This document shows positions 1-33,094 of a stretch of DNA of 64,000 nucleotides, piece after piece. The first letter of the stretch is position 1. The number at the start of each line of letters is the position of its first letter. Under the pieces are notes generated by a model. That model saw only the letters and a list, made by a program, of their open reading frames with translations. It was not told the DNA's origin and ran no database searches. The position numbers and the translations under genes were made by a program. Source of the stretch: Thomasclavelia cocleata (GTDB taxonomy: Bacteria; Bacillota_I; Bacilli_A; Erysipelotrichales; Coprobacillaceae); the NCBI RefSeq assembly GCF_900102365.1, contig NZ_FOIN01000003.1:1-64000 (forward strand), given 5' to 3'.

Positions 1-847
1 GTTCTACCAGCCACCATTTTCCTCCTGCATGACTTGGATCTATTACTATTGGCAAATGTGTCAGCTTTTTCACCACTGGTATCGCCTGCAGGTCTAATGT
101 ATTTCTTGTATATGTCTCAAACGTTCTTATCCCTCTTTCACATAATATCACATTTGGGTTACCATTTGCCATTATATATTCTGCTGACATGATCCATTCT
201 TCAAATGTTGCACTTAATCCTCTTTTCAACAGAATCGGTTTCTTTGTCCCTGCCCCTACTTTTTTCAACAGATCAAAGTTTTGCATATTTCTTGCTCCTA
301 TCTGAATCAAATCCACTTTTTCATTAAATTCATCCAGATACTGTACATCCATCAATTCCGAACAGATTGGCAGTCCTGTCGCCTCCTTTGCTGCTACTAA
401 AATATCCAGTCCAGATGATCCCATCCCCTGGAATGCATATGGTGAAGTTCTTGGCTTGAAAGCCCCGCCTCTTAAAATATTAGCACCAGCAGCTTTAGCA
501 GCTTTGGCAATTTCAATTACCTGTTCCTTGCTTTCAACTGAACACGGACCTGCAATCAAAGCCAGATTTTCTCCACCAACTTTAACTCCATCAACATCAA
601 CGATCGTATCATCAGGATGAAAAGCTCGATTAGCTAGTTTATACGGCTCTGATACTTTCATTACTTTTTCAACACATTCTTCTACTTCAATTATTTTAGG
701 ATCAATTTGTGTGGTATCTCCAATTATTCCAATAACAGATTGTCCTGTTCCATTTACTACACTAACTCTTAAGCCTTTATCAATTATAATTTTTGATACC
801 TTTTCTACATCTTTACTTGTTGCAGACATTTTCATTACAATAATCAT
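1..847 (-). CDS. aroF: 3-deoxy-7-phosphoheptulonate (DAHP) synthase, C-terminus cut by window edge
   Basis: Condenses phosphoenolpyruvate and erythrose 4-phosphate, the first step of the shikimate pathway to aromatic amino acids. Reading the minus strand from an ATG at 847 (SD AAAGGGGT just upstream) gives an open frame to base 1. Residues 1-70 look like the ferredoxin-like regulatory N-domain of the AroA-beta/KDOPS-type enzyme. The TIM-barrel follows with motifs LIAGPCSVES, GGAFKPRTSPYAFQG, RNMQNFDLL, PILLKRG, CERGIRT and PIVIDPSHAGGK. A T-box leader precedes it, so it should be induced when a cognate tRNA is uncharged. By eye the 3' half is more GC-rich and uses more CTG/CAG codons than neighbouring genes. 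The family call is secure; the exact symbol is less so. Confidence 0.93.
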   Translation of the reverse strand, partial: MIIVMKMSATSKDVEKVSKIIIDKGLRVSVVNGTGQSVIGIIGDTTQIDPKIIEVEECVEKVMKVSEPYKLANRAFHPDDTIVDVDGVKVGGENLALIAGPCSVESKEQVIEIAKAAKAAGANILRGGAFKPRTSPYAFQGMGSSGLDILVAAKEATGLPICSELMDVQYLDEFNEKVDLIQIGARNMQNFDLLKKVGAGTKKPILLKRGLSATFEEWIMSAEYIMANGNPNVILCERGIRTFETYTRNTLDLQAIPVVKKLTHLPIVIDPSHAGGKWWLVE

Positions 848-894
848 TTGTTATACCCCTTTGTTGTTTATTTCAACTCCTGTATATAAATAAA

Positions 895-1170
895 AGCTCT
901 CTTCCTTAAAGGACGAGAGCCTATGCTTCGTGATACCACCTTAGTTTATTAATATATTACTATATTAACCTCATCGAGTACGCTATCTATATAGTTCATA
1001 CTCTTACACGTTAACGGGTGTCACCGGAGAAACCTACTACTAACGATTCAGTCCTCTACTCCAAGATGAATTCAATATTATCTAGCAGACCCTTTTCCAC
1101 CAGCCAAGAGCTCTCTATTCCACTTCAAATATTTACTATTTCTTTTCACAGTATTTATACCAGATGTTGT
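895..1170 (-). promoter_or_regulatory. T-box riboswitch leader of DAHP synthase
   Basis: On the minus strand the leader has a Stem I distal-loop motif (GGCTGGTGGAAA near 1105), the antiterminator T-box core AAGGTGGTATCACG near 930-943, and a terminator hairpin at 895-920 (GCTCTCGTCC / GGAAGAGAGC) followed by T-rich sequence. T-boxes read the aminoacylation state of one tRNA. I could not place the specifier codon with confidence, so the sensed amino acid (Trp, Tyr or Phe expected from the gene) is open. Confidence 0.9.
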
Positions 1171-1177
1171 TGCAATT

Positions 1178-1206
1178 ATTGTATACAATAAAATTAATAA
1201 TGTCAA
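1178..1206 (-). promoter_or_regulatory. Sigma-A promoter for the DAHP synthase T-box transcript
   Basis: TTGACA (1201-1206) and TACAAT (1178-1183) with a 17-nt spacer sit immediately upstream of the T-box leader on the minus strand. Confidence 0.7.
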
Positions 1207-1253
1207 CATGTTTTATAAAAAGATTCTCAAGTTATTTATTTAAGTCTACATCA

Positions 1254-1280
1254 GTCTATATAATTCTGGCGGTTATAGAC
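1254..1280 (+). promoter_or_regulatory. Probable operator dyad upstream of XRE regulator
   Basis: GTCTATA (1254-1260) and TATAGAC (1274-1280) form a perfect inverted repeat with a 13-nt spacer. A related direct copy, GTCTACA, lies at 1244-1250. The dyad ends 12 nt upstream of a TATAAT at 1293-1298 and so covers the -35 region of the gene at 1320. This is the usual layout for autorepression by an XRE protein; binding is inferred. Confidence 0.5.
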
Positions 1281-1319
1281 AATTAAATACGATATAATTT
1301 TGGTAAGAGAGGAGGGGCC

Positions 1320-1739
1320 ATGAATAATATTGATACAACATTAATTGGTAAATACATCAAAAGTATTCGTCTTTCAAAAGGATGGTCACAAGCAAAACTA
1401 GAAAATTTATCAGGAATATCAGCATCTTCTATTAGTAATATTGAACATGGTAATAAAGGGATATCTTATAATATGTCAATTCCAGCAATTGTAAAAATTG
1501 CTCATGCTTTTCAAATGAGTTTTTATGATATTCTTAATAACTCTGGTTTTTTATCATATATAGGAGATCAGCAGTTTTCTCAAAACAAATCACAAATTTA
1601 CATAACCAATTATGAATTAATAAATTTGTTTAATCGTCTAAGTCCTAGTGACCAACAAACTTTTGTTAAAGAAATACATCATCGTATAGAAATATCAGAT
1701 AAACAAAAGCAACAACATATGTATAAAAAACTTAGATAG
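1320..1739 (+). CDS. XRE-family helix-turn-helix transcriptional regulator
   Basis: A 139-residue DNA-binding protein. Residues about 7-65 form an XRE/Cro-type HTH, with recognition region SQAKLENLSGISASSISNIE followed by GNKGISYNMSIPAIVKIAHAF. The C-terminal half (about 80-139) is polar and has no recognised ligand domain. The ATG at 1320 has SD GAGAGGAGGGG. The inverted repeat GTCTATA/TATAGAC just upstream suggests it represses its own gene. It is monocistronic and ends in a terminator, so its other targets are unknown. A second XRE protein of similar size is encoded at 7688-8041. Confidence 0.88.
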   Translation: MNNIDTTLIGKYIKSIRLSKGWSQAKLENLSGISASSISNIEHGNKGISYNMSIPAIVKIAHAFQMSFYDILNNSGFLSYIGDQQFSQNKSQIYITNYELINLFNRLSPSDQQTFVKEIHHRIEISDKQKQQHMYKKLR

Positions 1740-1790
1740 AAATATCATAAATAATCCCTACATTTAATTACAAGTTTTAAAATTCATTAA

Positions 1791-1820
1791 AAAAGATTTT
1801 TATCTACAAAAATCTTTTTT
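1791..1820 (+). terminator. Rho-independent terminator after XRE gene
   Basis: The arms AAAAGATTTTT and AAAAATCTTTT are followed by T-rich sequence. Confidence 0.7.
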
Positions 1821-2081
1821 ATTTTATTACAACCAAAATATCATTTACTATACTCCAGATTAAATCATTATCACATCTCAATTATTTTTGTTTTAACTAC
1901 AAATTAATACTTTATATACACAATAATTTATTCTTATTTATTTGCTTTTAATAAAAAAATGCAAAAAAAACCTTTTACAGTCATAATTCGACAAATTTTG
2001 TCATCTACAATATGTAATAATATATTTGTAAAGCATTACTGCTTTTAAATCTCATGAGATTAATAAATAATTTACGTTAAA
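1821..2081. other. AT-rich intergenic stretch, no gene seen
   Basis: No open frame with a ribosome-binding site, no convincing structured RNA and no repeat was seen between the XRE terminator and the tRNA terminator. Confidence 0.5.
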
Positions 2082-2108
2082 TAAAAAAGTCAACATAACA
2101 TGCTGACT
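2082..2108 (-). terminator. Terminator after tRNA-Leu
   Basis: On the minus strand GTCAGCAT / ATGTTGAC (2089-2107) forms a hairpin followed by a T run (2083-2088), just downstream of the tRNA 3' end. Confidence 0.75.
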
Positions 2109-2118
2109 CATCAACAAA

Positions 2119-2205
2119 TGGTGCCCAAGACCGGACTCGAACCGGTACAGTATCGCTACCGACGGATTTTGAGTCCGTTGCGTCTACCAATTTCGCCACT
2201 TGGGC
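2119..2205 (-). tRNA. tRNA-Leu, anticodon CAA
   Basis: An 87-nt tRNA with encoded CCA. The acceptor stem is GCCCAAG / CTTGGGC, the anticodon stem is ACGGA / TCCGT around loop CTCAAAA (anticodon CAA, reads UUG), there is a long variable arm typical of class II tRNA-Leu, and the T arm CCGGTTCGAGTCCGG is intact. Confidence 0.95.
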
Positions 2206-2317
2206 AACTACCGATAATTATTATATATAATTTAAACAATAAAATCAATAGTAAATTTTAAATAATTAAATATATATTAAAAAAATAAAAAAATATATTA
2301 AATTTATTAAAATAGTA

Positions 2318-2346
2318 TTGACGAATTGCATAAAATAACGTATTTT
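2318..2346 (+). promoter_or_regulatory. Candidate sigma-A promoter
   Basis: TTGACG (2318-2323), a 17-nt spacer and TATTTT (2341-2346) lie 36 nt upstream of the small ORF at 2382. Confidence 0.45.
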
Positions 2347-2381
2347 TAGAAGTAAATAAACTAGACAGATGGGGTAAACAT

Positions 2382-2591
2382 ATGGAACGTGACAAAATTT
2401 TAAGTGAGCTTAATGAAATAACTAATTCACTAGATGCAACTACAGAAACTTTAATCGGATTACAAGAAAATGCTAAATATGAAGAAGCAATCAAAAAAAT
2501 AGATATTGATTTATATCTTGATTTACCAATCCAGGAATTGAGTCGATTAGCTAATCGTTTAGCTAATCTTACTAACGAACTTTTAAAATAG
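2382..2591 (+). CDS. Small helical protein of unknown function
   Basis: A 69-residue acidic protein, predicted almost wholly helical with heptad-like spacing (LSELNEITNSLDATTETLIG, then LSRLANRLANLTNELL), so a coiled-coil or helical hairpin is likely. It has no Cys, no signal peptide and no membrane segment. The start follows a GGGG SD-like stretch and has a plausible promoter at 2318-2346. A strong terminator directly after the stop isolates it from rsmF. I do not recognise a family. It is not a clear XseB (exonuclease VII small subunit), which shares only the size and helicity. Confidence 0.6.
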   Translation: MERDKILSELNEITNSLDATTETLIGLQENAKYEEAIKKIDIDLYLDLPIQELSRLANRLANLTNELLK

Positions 2592-2612
2592 ACAAGCAGC
2601 TGCTTGTCTTTT
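2591..2612 (+). terminator. Terminator after small ORF
   Basis: The perfect palindrome GACAAGCAGCTGCTTGTC (2591-2608) is followed by TTTTA. Confidence 0.8.
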
Positions 2613-2640
2613 ACTTTAACTTATTACTAGAAGGTGAACT

Positions 2641-3963
2641 ATGAATAAACTATTTAAACAAAGAATGAAAATATTATTAAAAGATGACTATGATGATTTT
2701 ATCGAAGCTTTAACAAAAGATCCTATAAAAAGTTTTTATCTTAATCCTTTAAAAAAAGATATTATTTCACATTTAAATAAACAATATCTAACAGCTCATC
2801 CGTATATAAAAGATGCATATTTTTATGACTATAATCATTATCCACTTGGCAAACATCCATATTTTAACTGTGGTCTTTACTATATTCAAGAACCTAGTGC
2901 AATGGCAGTAGCAAATTGTGTAGATTTTAACGCTAATGACTATGTATTAGATATGTGTGCTGCCCCTGGAGGAAAAACTTGTTTTGTTGCTAGCAAACTA
3001 AATCAGCAGGGAATGATGATTGCCAATGACATTAATAAACTAAGAGCTGGAATTTTATCAGAAAATATTGAACGTTTTGGACTGAAAAATACTATTGTTA
3101 CTAACTGTGATCCTATAAAATTAGAGCAGCACTTTAATAATTTTTTTGATAAAATCATCCTTGATGCCCCATGTTCTGGTGAAGGAATGTTCCGTAAACT
3201 TGATCAAGCAATTGAAACATGGTCAATTGATAAAATAAATGAATGTGCTTATATCCAAAAAAAATTAATTGATAGTGCTTATAAAATGCTTAAAAATGAC
3301 GGGATTCTAATATATTCAACTTGTACATACTCATTAGAAGAAAATGAATTTCAAGTAGATTATATGGTTAATCAATTACAAATGGAATTGTTAGATATAA
3401 AAAAACACCCTGGCATGTCTCCTGGTTATCAAAATAATAAAGTTGTCCGAATGTATCCACACATTAATAAAGGTGAAGGTCAATTTATTGCTTTATTAAA
3501 AAAATATAGTCATGATAAAAGTAATAAAACTAAATTATTAAAACCAAATATAAATCGTGAACAACTTAAACTAATTAATCAATTTTATCAAAATAATTTA
3601 AAGATAAGTGTACCACCACATTTATATAACTCAAATAACCATATTTATGCAATTCTACCACATTTCCCTGAATTAAAAGGAATAAAAATTCTTCGTACTG
3701 GCTTATATTTAGGAGAATGTAAAAAAGGGCGTTTTGAACCTAGTCATTCTTTAGCACTAACACTCTCTAAAAATGATGTAAAACATTATTATAACTTTAA
3801 AGCTGATGATCTTGAGATAAGCAAATATATTCATGGAGAAACACTATCTGGAACAAATCAAAAAGGCTATGGACTAATATTAGTTGATGGTTATCCATTA
3901 TCTTTCTATAAAGAAAGTAATAATCAAGTAAAAAATTTATATCCTAAGGGGTTAAGAAGATGA
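2641..3963 (+). CDS. rsmF: rRNA (cytosine-5-)-methyltransferase, RsmF/NOL1-NOP2-Sun family
   Basis: A SAM-dependent RNA m5C methyltransferase of 440 residues, expected to act on 16S rRNA. The SAM-binding motif DMCAAPGGKT lies at about 104-113. Motif IV DAPCSGEG lies at 175-182 (Cys178, product-release cysteine). Motif VI STCTYSLEENE lies at 226-236 (catalytic Cys228). The extra C-terminal region (about 290-440), with RFEPSHSLAL, matches the RsmF-like RNA-binding extension found in Gram-positive members. The ATG at 2641 has SD AGAAGGTGA. The stop overlaps the start of the HD-domain gene by 4 nt, so the two are co-translated. Confidence 0.92.
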   Translation: MNKLFKQRMKILLKDDYDDFIEALTKDPIKSFYLNPLKKDIISHLNKQYLTAHPYIKDAYFYDYNHYPLGKHPYFNCGLYYIQEPSAMAVANCVDFNANDYVLDMCAAPGGKTCFVASKLNQQGMMIANDINKLRAGILSENIERFGLKNTIVTNCDPIKLEQHFNNFFDKIILDAPCSGEGMFRKLDQAIETWSIDKINECAYIQKKLIDSAYKMLKNDGILIYSTCTYSLEENEFQVDYMVNQLQMELLDIKKHPGMSPGYQNNKVVRMYPHINKGEGQFIALLKKYSHDKSNKTKLLKPNINREQLKLINQFYQNNLKISVPPHLYNSNNHIYAILPHFPELKGIKILRTGLYLGECKKGRFEPSHSLALTLSKNDVKHYYNFKADDLEISKYIHGETLSGTNQKGYGLILVDGYPLSFYKESNNQVKNLYPKGLRR

Positions 3964-4415
3964 ACCGTTTTCATATCATCAAAGATATAGTTTATGATAT
4001 CCTAAATAATGAATGTTTTGGCACTCATCGTAAAAATGGTTTAGAGCATTTATTTAATGTAGCAAATATGGCTAACCTATTAGCAAAAACAGAAAATCTT
4101 GATCAAGAAACAGCTGCTATTATCGGAATTCTACATGATTTAGCAACATATAAATTTCACACTAGTTTTGATCATGCTAATCGAAGCAGTATTTTAGCTA
4201 AAGATATTCTATCCAAGAGTAATCTTTTTAGTGATGCTGAAATAAACCTTATTATTACAGCAATAAAAAATCATTCTTTTAAAGAAAGAATTGATGATAA
4301 ATATAGTGAATTAATAAAAAATGCGGACTTATTAGTCCAGCATTTAAATGAACCAGATGCTCTTCTTTCTAAAAATAAACAAACTCGCTTAGATAACTTA
4401 TTTAACAAACGATAA
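3960..4415 (+). CDS. HD-domain phosphohydrolase
   Basis: A 151-residue metal-dependent phosphohydrolase of the HD superfamily. The metal ligands appear as His29 (LEHLFNVANMA), the HD doublet at 59-60 (GILHDLATYKF) and an Asp near 108 (KNADLLVQHL). Substrate is unknown; short HD proteins hydrolyse nucleotides or other phosphate esters. Its ATG overlaps the rsmF stop (ATGA), so it is the second gene of a two-gene operon. Its 3' end overlaps the convergent hydrolase gene by 18 nt. Confidence 0.82.
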   Translation: MNRFHIIKDIVYDILNNECFGTHRKNGLEHLFNVANMANLLAKTENLDQETAAIIGILHDLATYKFHTSFDHANRSSILAKDILSKSNLFSDAEINLIITAIKNHSFKERIDDKYSELIKNADLLVQHLNEPDALLSKNKQTRLDNLFNKR

Positions 4416-5051
4416 AATAATTGGAGCTAATTTAGTACTATTAATAACATAACTGCTATGATCCTCTTTTGGTAATATCAATAATTTACTGCCACTAATA
4501 TTATGAGCTATCTCAATTGTATGACTTTCTTTAATCATATCTTTACTACCCGCTAGAACTAATGTTCTAGCTTTTATTTTTTGTAATGTATAATGATTTA
4601 TATGTGGCTGATCTAACATTAACTTAATCTTAGGATCTTTTTTTATAATATAAGCTGCTTTCATTATATAATAAACATAGTCTTTTAATCCTCTTGGCTC
4701 AATATTTGCCCCACTAATAATTAAATCATTAATCAAATCACTCTGACTTGCAACTAATAACCCAACAATTCCTCCATCACTAAAGCCATAATATATCACA
4801 TCAGTTAATCCAAGTTTTTTTATAAAATCCATTATATCTTCAGCCATCGCTTGATAACTATATTTTTCAACCTTAGAACTTTCACCATGACCTCGACTAT
4901 CTATACAATAACAAGTATAATATTCTTTTAATACTTCTACTAACTGATCAAAAATATGATGCTCCTCACCATTACCATGAACTAAAATCATTGTTCTTCC
5001 TTGACCAGTTACTTTATAAAATAATTCACTTCCATTTACTACTATCTTCAT
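4398..5051 (-). CDS. Alpha/beta-fold hydrolase
   Basis: A 217-residue cytosolic alpha/beta hydrolase. The oxyanion motif HGNG lies at 25-28, the nucleophile elbow GFSDG at 89-93 (Ser91), a likely acid at Asp171 (GSKD) and the catalytic His198 (KEDHSSY). It lacks a large cap domain: only about 50 residues separate the nucleophile strand from the Asp. The exact ester or other substrate cannot be told from sequence. It overlaps the upstream TfoX_C gene by 4 nt, so they form an operon. Confidence 0.88.
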   Translation of the reverse strand: MKIVVNGSELFYKVTGQGRTMILVHGNGEEHHIFDQLVEVLKEYYTCYCIDSRGHGESSKVEKYSYQAMAEDIMDFIKKLGLTDVIYYGFSDGGIVGLLVASQSDLINDLIISGANIEPRGLKDYVYYIMKAAYIIKKDPKIKLMLDQPHINHYTLQKIKARTLVLAGSKDMIKESHTIEIAHNISGSKLLILPKEDHSSYVINSTKLAPIILSFVK

Positions 5052-25198: not shown

Positions 25199-28100
25199 TT
25201 AATCTTCTTTTTTTCTTTTTAACACTAAAGCTAATCCAGAAATTATTGTTAATGAACCAAACAAAGCAACTGATGAATTATCACTAGTTTCAACACCTGA
25301 TTTTGTAGATTCTGCAAGTTTTACTTCAGGTGCGATTACAGGTGTAATTGCATCATCTTCAACCTTTGCTGTAGTAACAGCATCAGGCCAATTATCTTGG
25401 TTAACAATTACTCTTTCCCCAGTTTTAGCATTTACATACCAGCCTTGAGCAATTGAAGTTACAATATTTTTATAATTAACATTTGCAGGTGTACCTGCTT
25501 TAATTGTTGCTTTAAAAATAACTTCTCTAGTTTCTTCAGGTTCAATTGATACACTTGCTTTATTTGTATCAACAAATTCAAAATATTCAGCATTTACAAA
25601 AACATCTTCTAAATCAATATCTAAAGTAATATCACCAATATTTACCAATGTTACTTTATAATCAATAACTTGGCCAGTTCCTGCATAGAAACCATCTAAA
25701 CCTTTATCAGGATCAGTAATTCTTTCTTTAGTCATTGTATAACCAATTACAGGTTCTAAATAATGAACAATTTCTTCTGTATCAATTTCATTACCATATT
25801 TATTAGTTAATAAATCTTTTACTTTTAAATTTGCTTTATTTAAAACTGTATTACTCTCATGATCTTTATTATTGAAAGAGTCAATAACAGTAACTGGTAT
25901 TTCAAATATTAACTCACCATTAGCTTCAATCTTACCTTCATAACTCCCATTCCAAGCTTCATGTTGTGATTTTCCATTAATTAAATAATCATCATTAGCT
26001 TCTACTTGTTTAGGTAATACGTCAGATACTAAGATATCTCTAGCTATACTATAAGGATTTGTTACAACAAGAGTGTAAATAATCTCATCACCTTTACTAA
26101 TAAAACTTTGTGATTTAATATCACTTGTTTTAATAATTGTTGGATCACCAACTACAATTACTGGAGTATAAGCATTAGATTCAATGATTGCTTCATTCCA
26201 TTTTACTAAATTATCTTCACTATAACCAATACCATGATCTTTATCAACTATTTTCTTTTCATTACTTTCTGCATCTATATATGTTGTATTAGCAATAGAA
26301 GTTACTGTATTTAAATAACCCTTTTTCAATTCTTCAGGTGTACCAACATTAACTGTTGCTTTAAAAATTACATCCTTACTTTTACATGCTTTAACTTCTA
26401 CATTTATTTCATCGCCATCAACGAATGTGAAATATCCACTATTCTTAAATACATCTTTTAAATTAATATTTAAATCAAGATCACCTGTATTTTCAAGAGT
26501 TACTTTATAATCAATTACTTCACCAGCTCCAGCAATAAATCCTTTTAAATCATCTTTAGGTTCAGTAACTCTTTCTTTTTTCATTGTATAACTTATTTTA
26601 GGATCTAAATAATGAATAACCTCAGCGGTTTCTTTAGATTCACCATATTTATTATCCGTTAAATTCATAGTTTGTAAACTAGCTTTATTCTTAATTACAT
26701 TATTAACAGTATTTGTATTATCAAAATCCTTTGTAACACGAACAACAATTGTAAATATCCTTTTTGCAGGTTCTATAACTTTACCATTTTCATCTATAGT
26801 CGCTCCAGGTATAGTACCTTTCCATTCGCCATTCCAAGTTTCACCAGTTAAGGCACCATCCAAAGAATAGCTCCCTACAGGAATAGTACCTTTAGGTAAT
26901 TCATCTTTAACAATAATATTTCTTTCTTCTTTATAATTATTTGTTACAGTTAAATTATATGTAATAAAACCATCTTTTGTAACATGAGTTGGTGTACTAC
27001 TTGTCTTAGTAATTACTGGATCTTTTGGCTTATAATTAACTAAGCCATTTTCACCAAAACCTTTACCACTAATTGTTGTGGCACCCTTATCATTAATAGT
27101 GATTGTATAAACTGAATCATTTTGTTCATAACCATTAGGTACCTTAGTTTCTTTCATATAATAAGTTGCTGTTTTTCCAGCTTGAGGCATGCGTAAAGTA
27201 GATAACTCTACAATTCCATCATCTTTAGATGTTCCTGAACCTTTTACTTCCTTACAATCAGCATCTTCATATACAGTAAATTCAGCACCAGCAACAGGTT
27301 TACTTTCTTCATCTACTTTCATAAATGTTACGTTTTTACCATATTCTACTGTAATATGAGTTTTACCACCAACTATATTTGTAGCTACATCCGTTGCATT
27401 TCCAGTACCAGATAAAGGATCTGCTACTTTAATATCAGTTTTCATTATTACTATACTATCATCAAAAGTTGTTCCATTAATTTTATAACTAGCCCCATAT
27501 CCTAACAAAATTTGATCAGTAGTACCTTCAGGAGCAATATAACTATTTTCAAAATCATTTGAAATCTTACCATTTCTCAAAAATTCTTTATTAGTATCTT
27601 TAATTAATGGTACATTAACAGTATTATTCCCCCCTAAATTTGGTGTACCACCTGCATTTAGAGGTTTAATATCTACTGTATATCTAACTTTCATAGGTGC
27701 ATTAAAAAACCAAGATCCATTATTTGATGTATACTTTTGAGTTCCTTCAGTATTTATATATCCAACCTCTGGAGTATATGCAAATTCTTTTGACTTAAAA
27801 GTATAGCCGTTTTTTAATGCTTCATTATCAAACAAAGAATGTAAATTAGCAATATTTACCATTGTATTAGAATATCCTTCTAAACGAGAAGATTCAAAAT
27901 TCCAACCTTTATCATTTTCTTCACACTCACCAAAGAAAAATGGAACAGGAATATTAAACGATTCAGGTACTTTATTTATAAATGTATATTCATCTAAGTT
28001 ACGTCTTACTTGTTCATTCCATTCAAAAGCAAAATTATACGTATTATCCAATTTTATCTTAGTCTCATATCTTTTCTTAATTGGATTATTTTCAGTACCA

Positions 28101-28351
28101 TAAATAGTGCTATTTGATAGAGCTAAATTAATTTTACTATTATTTGTAAAGTGTACTTCTTTAGTAGTTATATCGTTAACAAACTTTTCATCTGCTTCTG
28201 ATATAGAAATTGAATTAGAATCCAAATCAACATCTTTCCCACCAAATTGTACTATATTAGCTGCAAAACTTGTTATACCTGCTATAGAAAATATAGTTGC
28301 TATAGCAAGACCAAAAATTAATAATCTTTTGAAACCTTTTACTTTTTTCAT
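25199..28351 (-). CDS. Large cell-surface protein with SpaA-type and repeated DUF11-like domains
   Basis: 1050 residues. A signal peptide (about 1-31, LLIFGLAIATIFSIAGITSFA) leads to an N-terminal backbone region (32-335), one SpaA/prealbumin-like domain (340-432: VTFMKVDEESKPVAGAEFTV...MKETKVPNGYEQ), then two tandem repeats of about 280 residues (443-730 and 736-1006). Each repeat has a DUF11-like part beginning P-x-I-x-K-T-S and a part with YTM-x-KER followed by VIDYKVTL. The end is a hydrophobic helix plus KRKKED. The expected LPXTG is replaced by GVETSDN (1019-1025). It is likely wall- or membrane-anchored, and may form isopeptide bonds. It has a solo transcription unit. Confidence 0.88.
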   Translation of the reverse strand: MKKVKGFKRLLIFGLAIATIFSIAGITSFAANIVQFGGKDVDLDSNSISISEADEKFVNDITTKEVHFTNNSKINLALSNSTIYGTENNPIKKRYETKIKLDNTYNFAFEWNEQVRRNLDEYTFINKVPESFNIPVPFFFGECEENDKGWNFESSRLEGYSNTMVNIANLHSLFDNEALKNGYTFKSKEFAYTPEVGYINTEGTQKYTSNNGSWFFNAPMKVRYTVDIKPLNAGGTPNLGGNNTVNVPLIKDTNKEFLRNGKISNDFENSYIAPEGTTDQILLGYGASYKINGTTFDDSIVIMKTDIKVADPLSGTGNATDVATNIVGGKTHITVEYGKNVTFMKVDEESKPVAGAEFTVYEDADCKEVKGSGTSKDDGIVELSTLRMPQAGKTATYYMKETKVPNGYEQNDSVYTITINDKGATTISGKGFGENGLVNYKPKDPVITKTSSTPTHVTKDGFITYNLTVTNNYKEERNIIVKDELPKGTIPVGSYSLDGALTGETWNGEWKGTIPGATIDENGKVIEPAKRIFTIVVRVTKDFDNTNTVNNVIKNKASLQTMNLTDNKYGESKETAEVIHYLDPKISYTMKKERVTEPKDDLKGFIAGAGEVIDYKVTLENTGDLDLNINLKDVFKNSGYFTFVDGDEINVEVKACKSKDVIFKATVNVGTPEELKKGYLNTVTSIANTTYIDAESNEKKIVDKDHGIGYSEDNLVKWNEAIIESNAYTPVIVVGDPTIIKTSDIKSQSFISKGDEIIYTLVVTNPYSIARDILVSDVLPKQVEANDDYLINGKSQHEAWNGSYEGKIEANGELIFEIPVTVIDSFNNKDHESNTVLNKANLKVKDLLTNKYGNEIDTEEIVHYLEPVIGYTMTKERITDPDKGLDGFYAGTGQVIDYKVTLVNIGDITLDIDLEDVFVNAEYFEFVDTNKASVSIEPEETREVIFKATIKAGTPANVNYKNIVTSIAQGWYVNAKTGERVIVNQDNWPDAVTTAKVEDDAITPVIAPEVKLAESTKSGVETSDNSSVALFGSLTIISGLALVLKRKKED

Positions 28352-28521: not shown

Positions 28522-28768
28522 ATGCTCAAAAAGATAATAAATATCAAAATATTTATATTTTTTAAAACATGACAAAAAATACTAAAAACGATTAAAACAT
28601 TGTTCAAAAAACCTTAAAAACAATGATTTAATCAAATAAATTTCATTTTAAATAATTTAACTTTTTGAATCTTTTAATCATTAATTTTTTTATATTCATC
28701 ACAACAATATCATAAATTTTAAAGGAAATCCTGTTTTGCGCTAAATCCGCTAATTTTGCACAAAAAAA

Positions 28769-28785
28769 GATAGCTTTAAGCTATC
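28769..28785 (-). terminator. Terminator of the phosphoesterase-dehydrogenase operon
   Basis: On the minus strand GATAGC / GCTATC with a 5-nt loop is followed by TTTTTTTG, directly after the stop. Confidence 0.75.
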
Positions 28786-30171
28786 CTATAGAGTACATAC
28801 GTTTCTTAACTTATTAGTTTTAAATCCCTCAATATTTAAACAAACCTCATCAATAACTCGATTACGGGTTTCGATTGGAGCCCAAGCTATATGTGGTGTC
28901 ATAATCAATTTAGTTGCATCTTTAATTGATAAAAGCGGATTATTATTGTTAAATGGTTCATGTTCAAAAACATCTAAACCAGCACCAGCAATACTATGAT
29001 TTTTTATAGCTTCTGCTAAATCATTTTCATTTACAATCTTACCTCTACCTACATTAATTAGATAGGCAGTAGATTTCATTTTTTCAAAAGAATCTTTATT
29101 AAATAGGTTTTCTGTTTGTTTATTCAGTGGTGCATGAATAGAAATAATATCGCTTGTTTTTAATAAAGTATCAAAATCAACTTGTTGATAATTCTGTTGA
29201 TTATTTTTTCCACTAGTTGAATAATATTGCACTTTACAATCAAAAGCACTTGCAATTGCTGCTACTTTACGTCCAATATCCCCCATACCAACAATTCCCC
29301 ATGTTTTATTTGCTAATTCATGAAAAGTATGTCCTAAATGTGTAAACATTGAACTTGAAGAATAGTTTCCTGAATCAATATAATCATGATAATAATGATT
29401 CTTGTTATAAAGATCTAAAAGTAATGCAAAAGTATGCTGAGCAACAGCATTAGTTGAATACCCTTTAACATTACATACAGTAATACCAGCTTTTTTACAA
29501 TATTCTAAATCAATATTATTTACTCCTGTGGCTGTCACACAAATTACTTTCAACTGTAATGCATCTTTTAATTCTTCTTCGCCTAAATAATGTTTATTAG
29601 TTATTACAACATTAGCATTTTGTATTCGACTTTTAATCTCATCTTTGTCTGTTTGATGATAAATTGTCACTGCGCCTAATTTTTCTAGCTTCATCAAATC
29701 AATATCATCCCCTAATGTCTCACTATCTAAAAAAACAATTTTAAAATCAGCTTGAAGAATTTCAATTACATCGCTTAAACTTTTACCAGCTAACATTTCC
29801 CCTAATATAATTGCTTCATTTAAATCTAAAATCTTTGATGGATTACAATTTCCTGTCATAATACTATCATTAATTTCAAAACTTAAATCTTTATTCAATA
29901 AAGTAAGTCCTAAAGCACGATTAGTTATCTCATCCAATCTATCAAGTTCCTCTAAAACACAATCAACAAACTTAGCATCTTTTTCCAAACAAGATTTAAC
30001 ACACAAAGAAAAATCATTAAATTTACTTACTTCTTCTCTAAAAATATCATTATATAACAATGGCAAAACAATATTATATAGTTCCATTGGAACTGAACCA
30101 TACCCTTTAGTAAAACAATATAATATTGCACTACCTAATTTTTCATCTTTCATTCCATCTACTAGCTTCAT
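28786..30171 (-). CDS. D-2-hydroxyacid dehydrogenase with an extra N-terminal helical domain
   Basis: 461 residues, while the family usually has about 320. Residues 143-461 are a complete D-isomer-specific 2-hydroxyacid dehydrogenase: GMGDIG (295-300) binds NAD(P)H, and Arg376 (NVGRG), Glu405 (FEHEP) and His427 (MTPHIA) match the conserved residues. Residues 1-140 are an added helical domain: LGSAILYCFTKGY, VPMELYNIVLPLLY, TNRALGLTLL. Its pattern resembles the middle component of three-component ABC (ABC-3C) systems, but that is a weak, by-eye match. It begins 9 nt after the metallophosphoesterase gene, so the two form an operon. Confidence 0.8.
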   Translation of the reverse strand: MKLVDGMKDEKLGSAILYCFTKGYGSVPMELYNIVLPLLYNDIFREEVSKFNDFSLCVKSCLEKDAKFVDCVLEELDRLDEITNRALGLTLLNKDLSFEINDSIMTGNCNPSKILDLNEAIILGEMLAGKSLSDVIEILQADFKIVFLDSETLGDDIDLMKLEKLGAVTIYHQTDKDEIKSRIQNANVVITNKHYLGEEELKDALQLKVICVTATGVNNIDLEYCKKAGITVCNVKGYSTNAVAQHTFALLLDLYNKNHYYHDYIDSGNYSSSSMFTHLGHTFHELANKTWGIVGMGDIGRKVAAIASAFDCKVQYYSTSGKNNQQNYQQVDFDTLLKTSDIISIHAPLNKQTENLFNKDSFEKMKSTAYLINVGRGKIVNENDLAEAIKNHSIAGAGLDVFEHEPFNNNNPLLSIKDATKLIMTPHIAWAPIETRNRVIDEVCLNIEGFKTNKLRNVCTL

Positions 30172-30180
30172 TTTCTTCTC

Positions 30181-31644
30181 CTAAAACATATTTACTATAA
30201 TTCTTTGCCGATCCTGTAAAGTCATATCGTCATATACAATAAAACAATATTTGAAACACTTATAACGATGACTATATTTTAAAACATTATAACTTAAATA
30301 ACGACTATCACTTTCTTTAGCTCCACTACCACAAGAAGAACCTGCCGCAATAACATACATCCCATCATGATTATTAAAAAATGGTAAATGTTTATGACCA
30401 TGTAAAACATATTGAATTTGATGCTTTCTAAGCCACCACACCAATTCTTGACTATCAACTAAAGCTTTAGAACTATCCATGATTTTACCTACAAATACCT
30501 TTTCACGCCATCTTTGCTTTAAAAACTCGTCACGAGTAATTCGAAAAAGATGATGGTGTAACATTGCTACTAGAGTATATTCTTGTAAGTTAGGAATATT
30601 TTCTAATTCTTCATCAATATCAGATAATTGCTTTTGTCCTACTTTACCACGAGCTAAATTACCTTCAACAGTTGAATCAATCTTAATTAGTATAATTTTT
30701 TCTTCTTCAAAAACTTTAATACTTTCATTTAGTAAAAAAGCAATAACTTTACTTTTCTGTCTTTTAAAAACATTAAAACCATTTACAATAACATCATGGT
30801 TACCTAATATAAACGAAACATCACCACTATATTTATTCTTTAATAATTTCATAAAGCCCGATGCTTCATACATATTTTTGCGATTTGGTGAATTCATCAA
30901 GTCACCAGTTATTAAAAATTTTAATTGGTAATATGAACGTAATTGTTTACAAGTTTCGTCCAAACTTTCTTCCAAAGCTAAACGTCCTTGGTTTTTCCTT
31001 TTACTTCCTAAATGCAAATCACTTAATTGAACAAAATAACTATCATAAGGACTAAGATATTTGCTTGAAAAAACTGTATCATGATTAATTTTAAACATAA
31101 CTTCTTGAATATCCTTAATTGTATATACTGGTACAAAAGAACAATCTTCACCCTTAAATATTAATAATCCTGGCCAACGATCAATTTGATACAAGGCACT
31201 GACAAAATGCTTAAAAGGACCATAAAAAGTTAAATCATCTTTTTCTAATAAGCTATGACAATTAATTATACTTACTTTATCATTACTAAAGTCTTTAATT
31301 ATTTGTTTTGATGTCAAATAAATATTAATTGATTCATTATAATCAAAACTGGATAATACTACAATTTGATATTTATCTCTTTCAATATTAATATAATCAA
31401 TTAATTCCTGAAGATGTCTTGGATCTATTCTTTCAGTAATCTGATCTATTCTTTTTGCCTTACTAATAGCCATAAATGTATCATAATCAATATTTTCAAT
31501 TGCATTTAAATTTATATTACGTTTACGCATCCATTCTTTAAACTGACACAGTCCATGATATCCATCAAGAATGCGATTAAAATAAGTTATGCTATCATCA
31601 AAAATCAAATTTAAATAACAATTGATTAAATCATACTCATTCAT
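30181..31644 (-). CDS. Calcineurin-like metallophosphoesterase with a novel N-terminal domain
   Basis: 487 residues. The catalytic core starts near 203 with all metallophosphoesterase motifs in order: DLHLG (209-213), GDL (247-249), GNHD (281-284), a HHH motif (MLHHHLF) and GHKH. The first 200 residues are a separate domain that I do not recognise (alpha/beta pattern, IVVLSSFDYNES, VSIINCHSLLE). Substrate is unknown: nucleotide, nucleic acid or phosphoprotein are all possible. It is the first gene of a two-gene operon with the extended dehydrogenase. A -10-like TATAAT lies just before the SD AAGGAGG. Confidence 0.85.
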   Translation of the reverse strand: MNEYDLINCYLNLIFDDSITYFNRILDGYHGLCQFKEWMRKRNINLNAIENIDYDTFMAISKAKRIDQITERIDPRHLQELIDYINIERDKYQIVVLSSFDYNESINIYLTSKQIIKDFSNDKVSIINCHSLLEKDDLTFYGPFKHFVSALYQIDRWPGLLIFKGEDCSFVPVYTIKDIQEVMFKINHDTVFSSKYLSPYDSYFVQLSDLHLGSKRKNQGRLALEESLDETCKQLRSYYQLKFLITGDLMNSPNRKNMYEASGFMKLLKNKYSGDVSFILGNHDVIVNGFNVFKRQKSKVIAFLLNESIKVFEEEKIILIKIDSTVEGNLARGKVGQKQLSDIDEELENIPNLQEYTLVAMLHHHLFRITRDEFLKQRWREKVFVGKIMDSSKALVDSQELVWWLRKHQIQYVLHGHKHLPFFNNHDGMYVIAAGSSCGSGAKESDSRYLSYNVLKYSHRYKCFKYCFIVYDDMTLQDRQRIIVNMF

Positions 31645-31681
31645 TTTATCGCCTCCTTATATATTATACCGCATCATGAGA

Positions 31682-31707
31682 AAAAGCCTATTAAAATATA
31701 GGCTTTT
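31682..31707 (-). terminator. Terminator after asnS
   Basis: AAAAGCCTA / TAGGCTTTT flanked by T's on the minus strand, immediately after the asnS stop. Confidence 0.8.
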
Positions 31708-31708
31708 G

Positions 31709-33094
31709 TTAGAACTTTAAGTTTCTTGGAGTTCTTGGGAAAGGTTCAACATCGCGAATATTTTGCATACCAGTTAAATACATTAAGAAACGATCAAATC
31801 CTAGACCAAATCCAGCATGTTTACATCCACCAAAACGACGTAGATCCATATACCACTGTAATCCTTCCTTGCTCATTTGTTTTTCATCCATAATTCTTTC
31901 TAGAACATCATATCTTTCTTCACGCTGACTACCACCAACTAATTCTCCAATTCCTGGAACCAATAAATCACAAGCAGCAACAGTCTTATTATCATCATTT
32001 AAACGCATATAAAAAGCCTTGATTTCTTTTGGATAATCAGTTAAAAATACTGGTCCTTTAACAACTTCTTCACAAATATAACGCTCATGCTCACTGTTTA
32101 AATCCATTCCCCATGATACTTTATTGTTAAATTTAACATCTGCTTTTTCTAAAATTTCAATTGCCTCAGTATATGTCATCCGTTTAAAATCACTATTTCT
32201 TACTTTAGTAATTCGATTAATACAATCTTTATCAATCATTGAAGCAAAAAATTCCATTTCTGCAGGGGCATTATTTAAAACATAATCAATACAGTATTTT
32301 ACCATATCTTCAATTAAATCCATATCATCTTCAAGATCAGCAAAAGCTATTTCTGGCTCAATCATCCAAAATTCACTAGCGTGTCTAGATGTATTAGAAT
32401 TTTCTGCTCTAAACGCTGGTCCAAATGTATATACATCTCTAAACGCCATCGCAAAAGCTTCTACGTGCAATTGACCTGTAACAGTTAAAAAAGCTTCTTT
32501 TTCAAAGAAATCATCTTCAAAATTTGTACCATCAATTGTTGTAGCTCTAAACATTTCTCCAGCACCCTCACCATCATTACCGGTAATGATTGGTGTATGA
32601 ACATATACAAATCCTTGTGATTGGAAAAATTCATGAATCGCCATTGATAAAACACTTCTTAATCTAAAAATTGCATAAAAAGTATTTGCTCTTGGTCTTA
32701 AATGAGGAATTTCTCGCATATATTCAAAAGAATGACGTTTCTTTTGTAATGGAAAATCTTCTTCACATCTTCCTTCAATTTCAATTTCAGTTGCTTCTAC
32801 TTCAAAAGGCTGTTTACCTTCAGGTGTTAACTTTAATTTACCAACTACCCTTATAGAGCTACCAGTTGATAATTTATCAACCTCTACATAATTTTCAATC
32901 CCCTGTTCAGTATAAACAACTTGTAAATTTTTAAAATATGTACCATCGTTTAATGCAATAAATCCCAATTTACCACTATTACGATTAGTACGGACCCATC
33001 CCTCAAGTTCAACATACTCATAACCTTCTAAATCCATCAGTTGGTTACTTAAAAACATTTCATATAGTTCTCTAACCGTTATAAATTCAAACAT
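31709..33094 (-). CDS. asnS: Asparaginyl-tRNA synthetase
   Basis: 461 residues, class IIb. The N-terminal OB-fold anticodon domain ([20 protein letters not shown], about 26-45) is followed by the catalytic core with motif 2 ([21 protein letters not shown]) in two parts and motif 3 [15 protein letters not shown] near the C-terminus. The NTSRHxSEFW signature separates AsnRS from AspRS. It charges tRNA-Asn directly, so the genome does not need the transamidation route for Asn. Monocistronic, 55 nt downstream of rex. Confidence 0.96.

What the first reader, a model, noticed from the sequence alone, without database searches (positions are those of the whole stretch)
28786..31644. Two-gene operon: metallophosphoesterase with a new N-domain and a dehydrogenase fused to an ABC-3C-like helical domain
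The dehydrogenase has about 140 extra N-terminal residues whose pattern (LPLLY, TNRALGL) recalls the middle component of three-component ABC conflict systems. Its partner has a complete phosphoesterase core behind about 200 unexplained residues. They are 9 nt apart with their own terminator. This could be an undescribed defence or stress unit, for instance one that senses a nucleotide or metabolite.
Basis: inference. Interest (0 to 1): 0.58.

Follow-up and report, generated by a model that had tools for sequence, protein, structure and literature searches.

The report
Immune-type adaptor fused to metabolic dehydrogenase
A conserved gene pair in gut bacteria joins an adaptor domain otherwise known from antiviral and antiplasmid defence complexes to an ordinary-looking metabolic enzyme, next to a phosphate-cutting enzyme, and it looks like a defence part put to everyday use rather than a defence island.

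Summary
The window comes from a Thomasclavelia-like genome (Coprobacillaceae). The dehydrogenase's first 140 residues are a Lamassu/ABC-3C middle component (LmuC, Pfam MC3). Pfam MC3 is hit by 23 of 26 relatives (best E 1.6e-8). A confident model (pLDDT 93) matches solved LmuC chains at Z 15.5-17 over 134-135 of 140 residues; the first unrelated entry is at 7.7. The remainder is a D-2-hydroxyacid dehydrogenase with its motifs intact. The partner is a metallophosphoesterase with its motifs intact; its 200 extra residues model as a thioredoxin-like fold without CxxC (moderate confidence). The pair is core: 32 of 37 family genomes carry it intact and adjacent, behind asnS in nearly all loci checked. 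PE is absent from 23 order-level relatives. All domains are under purifying selection, and the middle-component domain was lost in one subclade. There is no SMC-like LmuB at the locus, no island context, and no viral or plasmid copy was found. Most likely it is an exapted adaptor docking a dehydrogenase to the phosphoesterase or another partner, in a vertically inherited metabolic or regulatory unit. Docking partner and substrates are inferred, not shown.

The parts
31051..31644 (-). PE N-terminal domain (residues 1-198): helical segment plus thioredoxin-like fold, no CxxC, conserved WPG before a beta hairpin
   Evidence: AF2 pLDDT 87.3; Foldseek and VIA lists dominated by thioredoxin-fold chains, best Z 6.2; no convincing Pfam match; Cys positions 9, 33, 129, 168
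30184..31038 (-). PE metallophosphoesterase (calcineurin-like) domain, residues 203-487, with SDLH, GD, GNHD, HHH, HGH motifs
   Evidence: Pfam Metallophos 2.5e-9; motifs; their metal-motif residues invariant in 24 relatives
29752..30171 (-). LmuC/ABC-3C middle-component-like domain (residues 1-140) of the fused dehydrogenase
   Evidence: MC3 in 23 of 26 members; model pLDDT 93.2; LmuC Z 17.0/16.8/15.5
28789..29745 (-). D-2-hydroxyacid dehydrogenase (residues 143-461), GMGDIG nucleotide motif, motifs carrying the usual Arg/Glu/His (NVGRG, LDVFEHEP, TPH)
   Evidence: 2-Hacid_dh_C 2.1e-57; PRK08410 432.9 bits over cut-off 389; motifs
28767..28787 (-). terminator-like hairpin at the end of the operon
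   Evidence: read directly
31681..31707 (-). hairpin plus T run after asnS, followed at 31668-31663 by TATAAT and at 31657-31652 by an AGGAGG Shine-Dalgarno; suggests a transcript of its own
   Evidence: read; not scored by the pattern scan, so inference

Best explanation
A middle-component (LmuC-type) docking domain from an ABC-3C/Lamassu conflict system was fused once to a D-2-hydroxyacid dehydrogenase in the ancestor of the Coprobacillaceae and has been kept as part of a core two-gene operon with a metallophosphoesterase. The domain no longer has an SMC-like partner at the locus. It most likely works as a protein-docking arm that holds the dehydrogenase on a partner, first of all the phosphoesterase made from the same message, so that hydroxyacid/NAD(H) binding and phosphoester cleavage are coupled. 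Shown: domain identities, intact catalytic motifs, synteny, single origin with later loss, purifying selection. Inferred: the docking partner, the coupling, the substrates, the cellular role (metabolic or stress regulation rather than phage defence).
For: MC identity: 23 of 26 members hit Pfam MC3, best 1.6e-8. LmuC 9hqu_D is the top PDB sequence hit, aligned over 6-141, but only at E 0.23. The three Foldseek hits with probability 1.00 are LmuC chains. VIA Z 17.0/16.8/15.5 over 134-135 residues, a fourth LmuC entry at 9.5, first unrelated entry 7.7. Core operon: PE in 36 of 37 and MC-DH in 33 of 37 family genomes, adjacent in 32; 0 of 23 order-level relatives have PE. Tight coupling: in 23 loci measured the junction runs from -29 to +18 nt, 15 of 23 overlapping (starts taken from homology). 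Same place after asnS across genera, while in 9 of the 10 outside genomes fetched asnS has no PE or MC-DH beside it on the sequence seen; the tenth contig ends 0.2 kb after asnS. One origin: the 39 operon dehydrogenase domains form one branch (SH-aLRT 98), with the MC-less G015 and G031 genes nested inside it. MC domain dN/dS 0-0.26 in the 10 of 11 pairs with usable dS. The published list of Lamassu effector domains includes a 'double-Rossmann dehydrogenase' (PMC10586767, section 9 read), so dehydrogenases are already known next to this adaptor.
Against: No interaction was shown. Mirror-tree analysis gave no excess covariation between the MC and PE N-domains once asnS, DH and the PE core are taken out (partial r -0.20, 1954 of 2000 permutations at least as high); MC-DH 0.24, MC-MPP 0.13. 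DH covaries more with PE-N (0.47) and with MPP (0.54), which could as well be linkage. In G010 (Beduini) PE and MC-DH are on different contigs, and G015 and G031 keep PE beside an MC-less dehydrogenase, so the MC domain is not needed for co-inheritance.
Confidence: 0.45

Rival explanations
1. Two ordinary metabolic enzymes share an operon. The MC domain is only an oligomerisation or stability extension of a glycerate/hydroxypyruvate-type dehydrogenase and couples nothing.
For: Housekeeping locus and vertical inheritance; MC lost without loss of the gene pair in G015 and G031; no MC-PE covariation signal; PRK08410 equivalog score over cut-off.
Against: The MC domain stays under purifying selection (dN/dS 0-0.26 in 10 of 11 pairs) and in frame in 33 of 37 genomes; LmuC domains in solved complexes are subunits of an assembly (entry titles).
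Confidence: 0.28
2. A resident anti-phage unit: PE as a nucleotide- or second-messenger-cutting effector gated by the MC-dehydrogenase, akin to DS-9 or a stripped-down Lamassu.
For: All 24 PE members score against the DS-9 phosphoesterase model, best 7.9e-23; DS-9 needs its metallophosphatase residues for defence (PMC13092281, passages read); MC domain of ABC-3C type.
Against: DS9_1 score 71 bits against a cut-off of 420; only the phosphoesterase core aligns to a DS-9A-like protein, not the N-domain. Partner is a dehydrogenase, not a HAD phosphatase. Core and syntenic, not patchy. No match in plasmids or viral contigs beyond generic phosphoesterases and dehydrogenases. No LmuB.
Confidence: 0.15
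3. The MC domain still does what LmuC does: it sits on an SMC/Rad50-type ATPase, now the housekeeping SMC-ScpAB or SbcC, and brings the dehydrogenase and PE to the chromosome.
For: In solved Lamassu complexes LmuC is in one assembly with the SMC-like LmuB (entry titles; PMC10586767 section 9). scpA follows within 1.6 kb in 8 of 36 distinct loci looked at (L064-L068, L074, L108, L110), at 5.8-6.6 kb in 5 more (L073, L099, L100, L103, L104), not seen in 23, two of which (L101, L107) have under 1 kb of sequence there (L076 left out as the same locus as L114). Own genome has SMC, SbcC and a JetC part.
Against: scpAB is not near in the window's own genus and gene order may be incidental; spoVA and other genes occupy the same place in other genera. 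G015 has scpAB next door but no MC domain. No interface evidence.
Confidence: 0.1

Closest known systems
Lamassu / DdmABC / ABC-3C middle component LmuC (Pfam MC3, PF20131; PDB 9hqu, 9uxh, 9ny5, 9nyg)
   Same: Same fold over nearly the whole domain (Z 15.5-17 for three entries) and a profile match; pattern 'LGxAL..F..GY...P.P....vLP' shared in the alignment to LmuC
   Different: Fused to a metabolic dehydrogenase; no LmuB, no LmuA-type nuclease; core chromosomal gene pair instead of a patchy defence cassette
DS-9 (metallophosphatase + HAD phosphatase, DefensePredictor, PMC13092281)
   Same: PE core related to DS-9A (71 bits; hhalign 98.6% over the core)
   Different: N-domain not shared, partner is not a HAD phosphatase, score far under the family cut-off
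D-2-hydroxyacid dehydrogenase PRK08410 / glycerate dehydrogenase-like enzymes
   Same: Complete catalytic domain, 432.9 bits over cut-off 389; nearest solved 5tx7
   Different: 140-residue MC domain in front; of 2842 plasmid records with a related dehydrogenase none covers 80% of the query
ABC-3C/Lamassu effectors with a double-Rossmann dehydrogenase (listed in PMC10586767, section 9)
   Same: A dehydrogenase associated with an ABC-3C middle component
   Different: There the dehydrogenase is the LmuA effector in a system with LmuB; here it is fused to the middle component itself and LmuB is absent

Membership tests
ABC-3C / Lamassu | Middle component (LmuC/MC) present | tested here: met
   MC3 in 23 of 26 members; fold Z 15.5-17 to three LmuC entries. 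The window's own protein stays under Pfam's cut-off (20.9 against 23.2 bits); 7 family genomes exceed it
ABC-3C / Lamassu | SMC/Rad50-like ATPase LmuB in the operon | tested here: not met
   Operon ends with the dehydrogenase and a terminator. Own genome's best LmuB-model match is the 981-aa SMC; only 3 of 41 family genomes (G023, G013, G016) have frames of about 650 aa matching the model, on other contigs or far from the pair
ABC-3C / Lamassu | LmuA-type effector with docking C-terminal domain | tested here: inconclusive
   PE could play the effector, but its extra domain is N-terminal and thioredoxin-like; no ABC-3C CTD match in Pfam for it
ABC-3C / Lamassu | Patchy, mobile or defence-island context (usual, not strictly defining) | tested here: not met
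   Family-wide synteny after asnS; no plasmid or viral copies
DS-9 | Score over the NCBIfam DS9_1 cut-off | tested here: not met
   71 bits against 420
DS-9 | HAD phosphatase partner gene | tested here: not met
   Partner is MC-dehydrogenase; nothing else in the operon
D-2-hydroxyacid dehydrogenase (PRK08410) | Score over cut-off and catalytic motifs | tested here: met
   432.9 over 389 bits; motifs
D-2-hydroxyacid dehydrogenase (PRK08410) | Enzyme activity and substrate | not testable with these tools
   needs assay
Calcineurin-like metallophosphoesterase | Metal-binding motifs | tested here: met
   SDLH, GD, GNHD, HHH, HGH, conserved in A2
Thioredoxin-like fold (PE N-domain) | Fold match | tested here: inconclusive
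   Foldseek E 0.012 and up with probability 0.9-1.00 for most thioredoxin-fold chains listed; VIA Z at most 6.2 over about 100 of 198 residues, in the range that may be common arrangement

The most novel reading that the evidence does not exclude
A conflict-system adaptor (LmuC) has been domesticated as a general docking arm that ties a redox or hydroxyacid-sensing enzyme and a phosphoesterase to an SMC/Rad50-type ATPase of the cell, giving a direct link between NAD(H)/carbon state and chromosome or nucleotide handling in Coprobacillaceae.
Probability: 0.08. Interest if true: 0.85.

Novelty: new variant of a known kind. Interest (0 to 1): 0.52.

Why it matters
Middle components of Lamassu/ABC-3C systems are known from three-gene defence cassettes. 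A strictly conserved one in a core operon, welded to a metabolic enzyme and without its SMC-like motor, would show that this adaptor can work outside immunity. It gives a small, family-wide system in which to ask what the domain binds and whether the phosphoesterase is controlled by a dehydrogenase. In the held library I found no description of such a fusion (searches); most subscription papers, among them the original ABC-3C classification, were not found there.

Tried and rejected
Defence-island idea: neighbours are housekeeping genes in nearly every locus looked at; rejected. DS-9 membership: core-only similarity; rejected. A second MC3 system in the phylum: the only non-family MC3 hit (G270) has five in-frame stops and lies between dnaN-like and parA-like genes (names from recall); taken as chance. 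PE N-domain by sequence: no convincing Pfam match; PDB sequence hits to protein A helices read as composition; the fold search gives thioredoxin-like at modest Z only. No LmuA-like chain was among the listed fold matches for the PE N-domain, which excludes nothing. LmuB in trans: only weak matches to SMC, SbcC and a JetC part in the own genome. Covariation of the MC and PE N-domains: negative. The viral structure library was not searched.

Choices and dropped rows. One search was a failed script; one search repeated it after dropping L111 (PE N-domain not aligned) and L101 (asnS cut short), leaving 28 rows. In one search the label 'window_noMC' is a labelling slip of my script (the window has the MC domain), and the chosen outgroup was not one side of a branch. 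A1 holds 26, A2 and A3 24 and A4 34 rows, chosen by hand from the loci at hand. In one search, 11 pairs were chosen; MC dS was saturated in one. In one search, 41 genomes of the family were searched, so it includes six not in the 37, and lacks G007 and G008.

Full report
What is there. Two ORFs lie on the minus strand: PE, 30181-31644 (487 aa), then MC-DH, 28786-30171 (461 aa), 9 nt apart. A terminator-like hairpin sits at the MC-DH stop. Upstream, asnS (31709-33094) is followed by a hairpin with a T run, then TATAAT and AGGAGG just before PE (read), so the pair may have its own transcript; this is inference. The own genome is 2.96 Mb in 88 contigs. The closest named relatives are Thomasclavelia saccharogumia and others of the Coprobacillaceae (lineage labels).

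The dehydrogenase. Residues 143-461 are a D-2-hydroxyacid dehydrogenase: PF02826 2.1e-57, PRK08410 432.9 bits over the cut-off of 389, nearest solved protein 5tx7. The nucleotide motif GMGDIG and the motifs NVGRG, LDVFEHEP and TPH are present (that these carry the catalytic Arg, Glu and His is recalled).

Its N-domain. With the whole protein, Pfam MC3 is hit at 0.0029. With the 140 residues alone it is 2.7e-4, 20.9 bits, still under the cut-off of 23.2. Of 26 family members 23 hit MC3, best 1.6e-8. In 392 genomes of the phylum MC3 rings at E up to 0.001 in 10: nine of this family and one chance match with in-frame stops (checked). The profile's best PDB sequence match is LmuC of Salmonella Lamassu, 9hqu_D, aligned over nearly its whole length but at E 0.23, not significant alone. 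The AlphaFold2 model is confident (pLDDT 93.2, pTM 0.88). Foldseek gives three matches with probability 1.00, all LmuC (9hqu_D E 3.3e-4, 9uxh_D 1.1e-3, 9ny5_C 0.019). VIA-align gives Z 17.0, 16.8 and 15.5 at rmsd 2.4-2.6 over 134-135 residues, 9.5 for a fourth LmuC entry, and 7.7 for the best unrelated chain. Sequence and structure agree: this is a middle-component domain of LmuC type.

The phosphoesterase. PE has the calcineurin-like core (PF00149 2.5e-9) with SDLH, GD, GNHD, HHH and HGH motifs, conserved in 24 relatives. All 24 relatives score on the DS-9 phosphoesterase model (best 7.9e-23), but the window's protein reaches 71 bits against a cut-off of 420. A DS-9A-like protein from a Klebsiella plasmid, followed by a HAD gene and Hachiman genes, aligns only over the core (183-430). 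The first 198 residues match no Pfam family convincingly. Their model (pLDDT 87.3, pTM 0.84) finds mostly thioredoxin-fold chains (Foldseek E 0.012 and up; VIA Z at most 6.2 over about 100 residues). The order of elements after residue 90 and a conserved WPG before a beta hairpin fit a thioredoxin-like fold, and there is no CxxC. I call it thioredoxin-like with moderate confidence and non-redox by inference.

Distribution. Among 37 genomes of the family (G000-G036) PE is found in 36 and MC-DH with its N-domain in 33; the two are adjacent in 32. Exceptions: G009 (69% complete, neither), G010 (both, on different contigs), G015 and G031 (PE next to a dehydrogenase without the MC domain), G017 (PE followed by scpA, no dehydrogenase beside it). 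None of 23 order-level relatives has PE. A wider sample gave the MC profile in 10 of 295 genomes and full-length PE in 17 of 392, all of the same family; seven others matched only pieces of the generic phosphoesterase core. A scan of the named genome collection with the N-domain profile returned 25 loci, all of this group as far as named. No plasmid or viral copy was found; plasmid and phage matches to PE were partial, at 23-29% identity.

Locus. In nearly all loci the order is tsaE, tsaB, rimI, tsaD, rex, asnS, PE, MC-DH (these gene names are recalled from the sequences). Exceptions are L111, where two other ORFs lie between asnS and PE, L105, where no asnS was seen in 5 kb upstream, and Beduini (L112), where MC-DH is elsewhere. 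In 9 of 10 outside genomes fetched, asnS has rex and/or the tsa genes beside it but no PE or MC-DH after it; the tenth (L179) ends 0.2 kb after asnS. So the pair was added behind asnS in the family's ancestor. scpA follows within 1.6 kb in 8 of 36 distinct loci and at 5.8-6.6 kb in 5 more; in others spoVA genes or a DEAD helicase follow. In 23 loci where it could be measured the PE/MC-DH junction is -29 to +18 nt, 15 overlapping.

Evolution. In a quick tree of 51 dehydrogenase domains the 39 operon sequences form one branch (SH-aLRT 98), and the MC-less genes of G015 and G031 are nested inside it next to MC-bearing G023. So the fusion is ancestral and the domain was lost later in that subclade. 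dN/dS of the MC domain is 0-0.26 in the 10 of 11 close pairs with usable dS, that of the dehydrogenase domain 0.04-0.15: the domain is maintained. A distance-matrix test over 28 genomes showed no special tie between the MC and PE N-domains (partial r -0.20), a weak one between MC and its own dehydrogenase (0.24, 42 of 2000 permutations as high), and stronger ones between the dehydrogenase and both parts of PE (0.47, 0.54, 0 of 2000). This speaks for two enzymes evolving together but not for the MC domain touching the PE N-domain.

Missing partner. ABC-3C/Lamassu systems have an SMC-like ATPase LmuB, an effector LmuA and usually the middle component (PMC10586767, section 9 read). Here no ATPase gene adjoins. 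Three of 41 family genomes have frames of about 650 aa matching LmuB, not tied to this locus.

Interpretation. The most economical reading is exaptation: an adaptor made to hold subunits together in a conflict system now serves a conserved dehydrogenase-phosphoesterase unit. The same review lists a 'double-Rossmann dehydrogenase' among Lamassu effectors, so an ancestral cassette with a dehydrogenase is plausible; that is a lead, not a demonstration. Which protein the MC domain binds is open; PE is my first guess because of translational coupling and co-inheritance, with the covariation test as evidence against. Substrates are unknown; hydroxypyruvate/glycerate-type 2-oxoacids for the dehydrogenase and cyclic or nucleotide phosphoesters for PE are guesses from the families.

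Papers: PMC13092281, PMC7159879 and PMC12409362 were read as passages only; PMC10586767 as passages plus section 9; all others were seen in search listings only. The original ABC-3C classification and the Lamassu structure papers did not turn up in the held library; what I say of them comes from the review and from PDB titles.

Noticed in passing
L152 (own genome G000:C65:6500-11500), 147-3136 and 3212-4915: Wadjet genes JetA, JetB and a 476-aa JetC that matches only the first half of the model (1-490 of 1097), followed by a 567-aa ORF: possibly a split JetC.
   Followed up: partly
L067 (G031:C269), 2974-4841: Two MC-less dehydrogenases in tandem after PE, the second broken into two frames.
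   Followed up: partly
L064-L068, L074, L108, L110: scpA, in most with scpB, follows closely downstream of PE-(MC-)DH in several genera, a recurring neighbour of an SMC-complex operon.
   Followed up: partly
L138 (Klebsiella plasmid NZ_AP021931.1), 2993-5475: DS-9-like metallophosphoesterase plus HAD gene directly upstream of Hachiman genes.
   Followed up: no
window 25199-28351: 1050-aa protein with repeated domains and a C-terminal hydrophobic stretch plus KRKKED tail, surface-anchor-like; its counterpart in L090 is in two ORFs.
   Followed up: no
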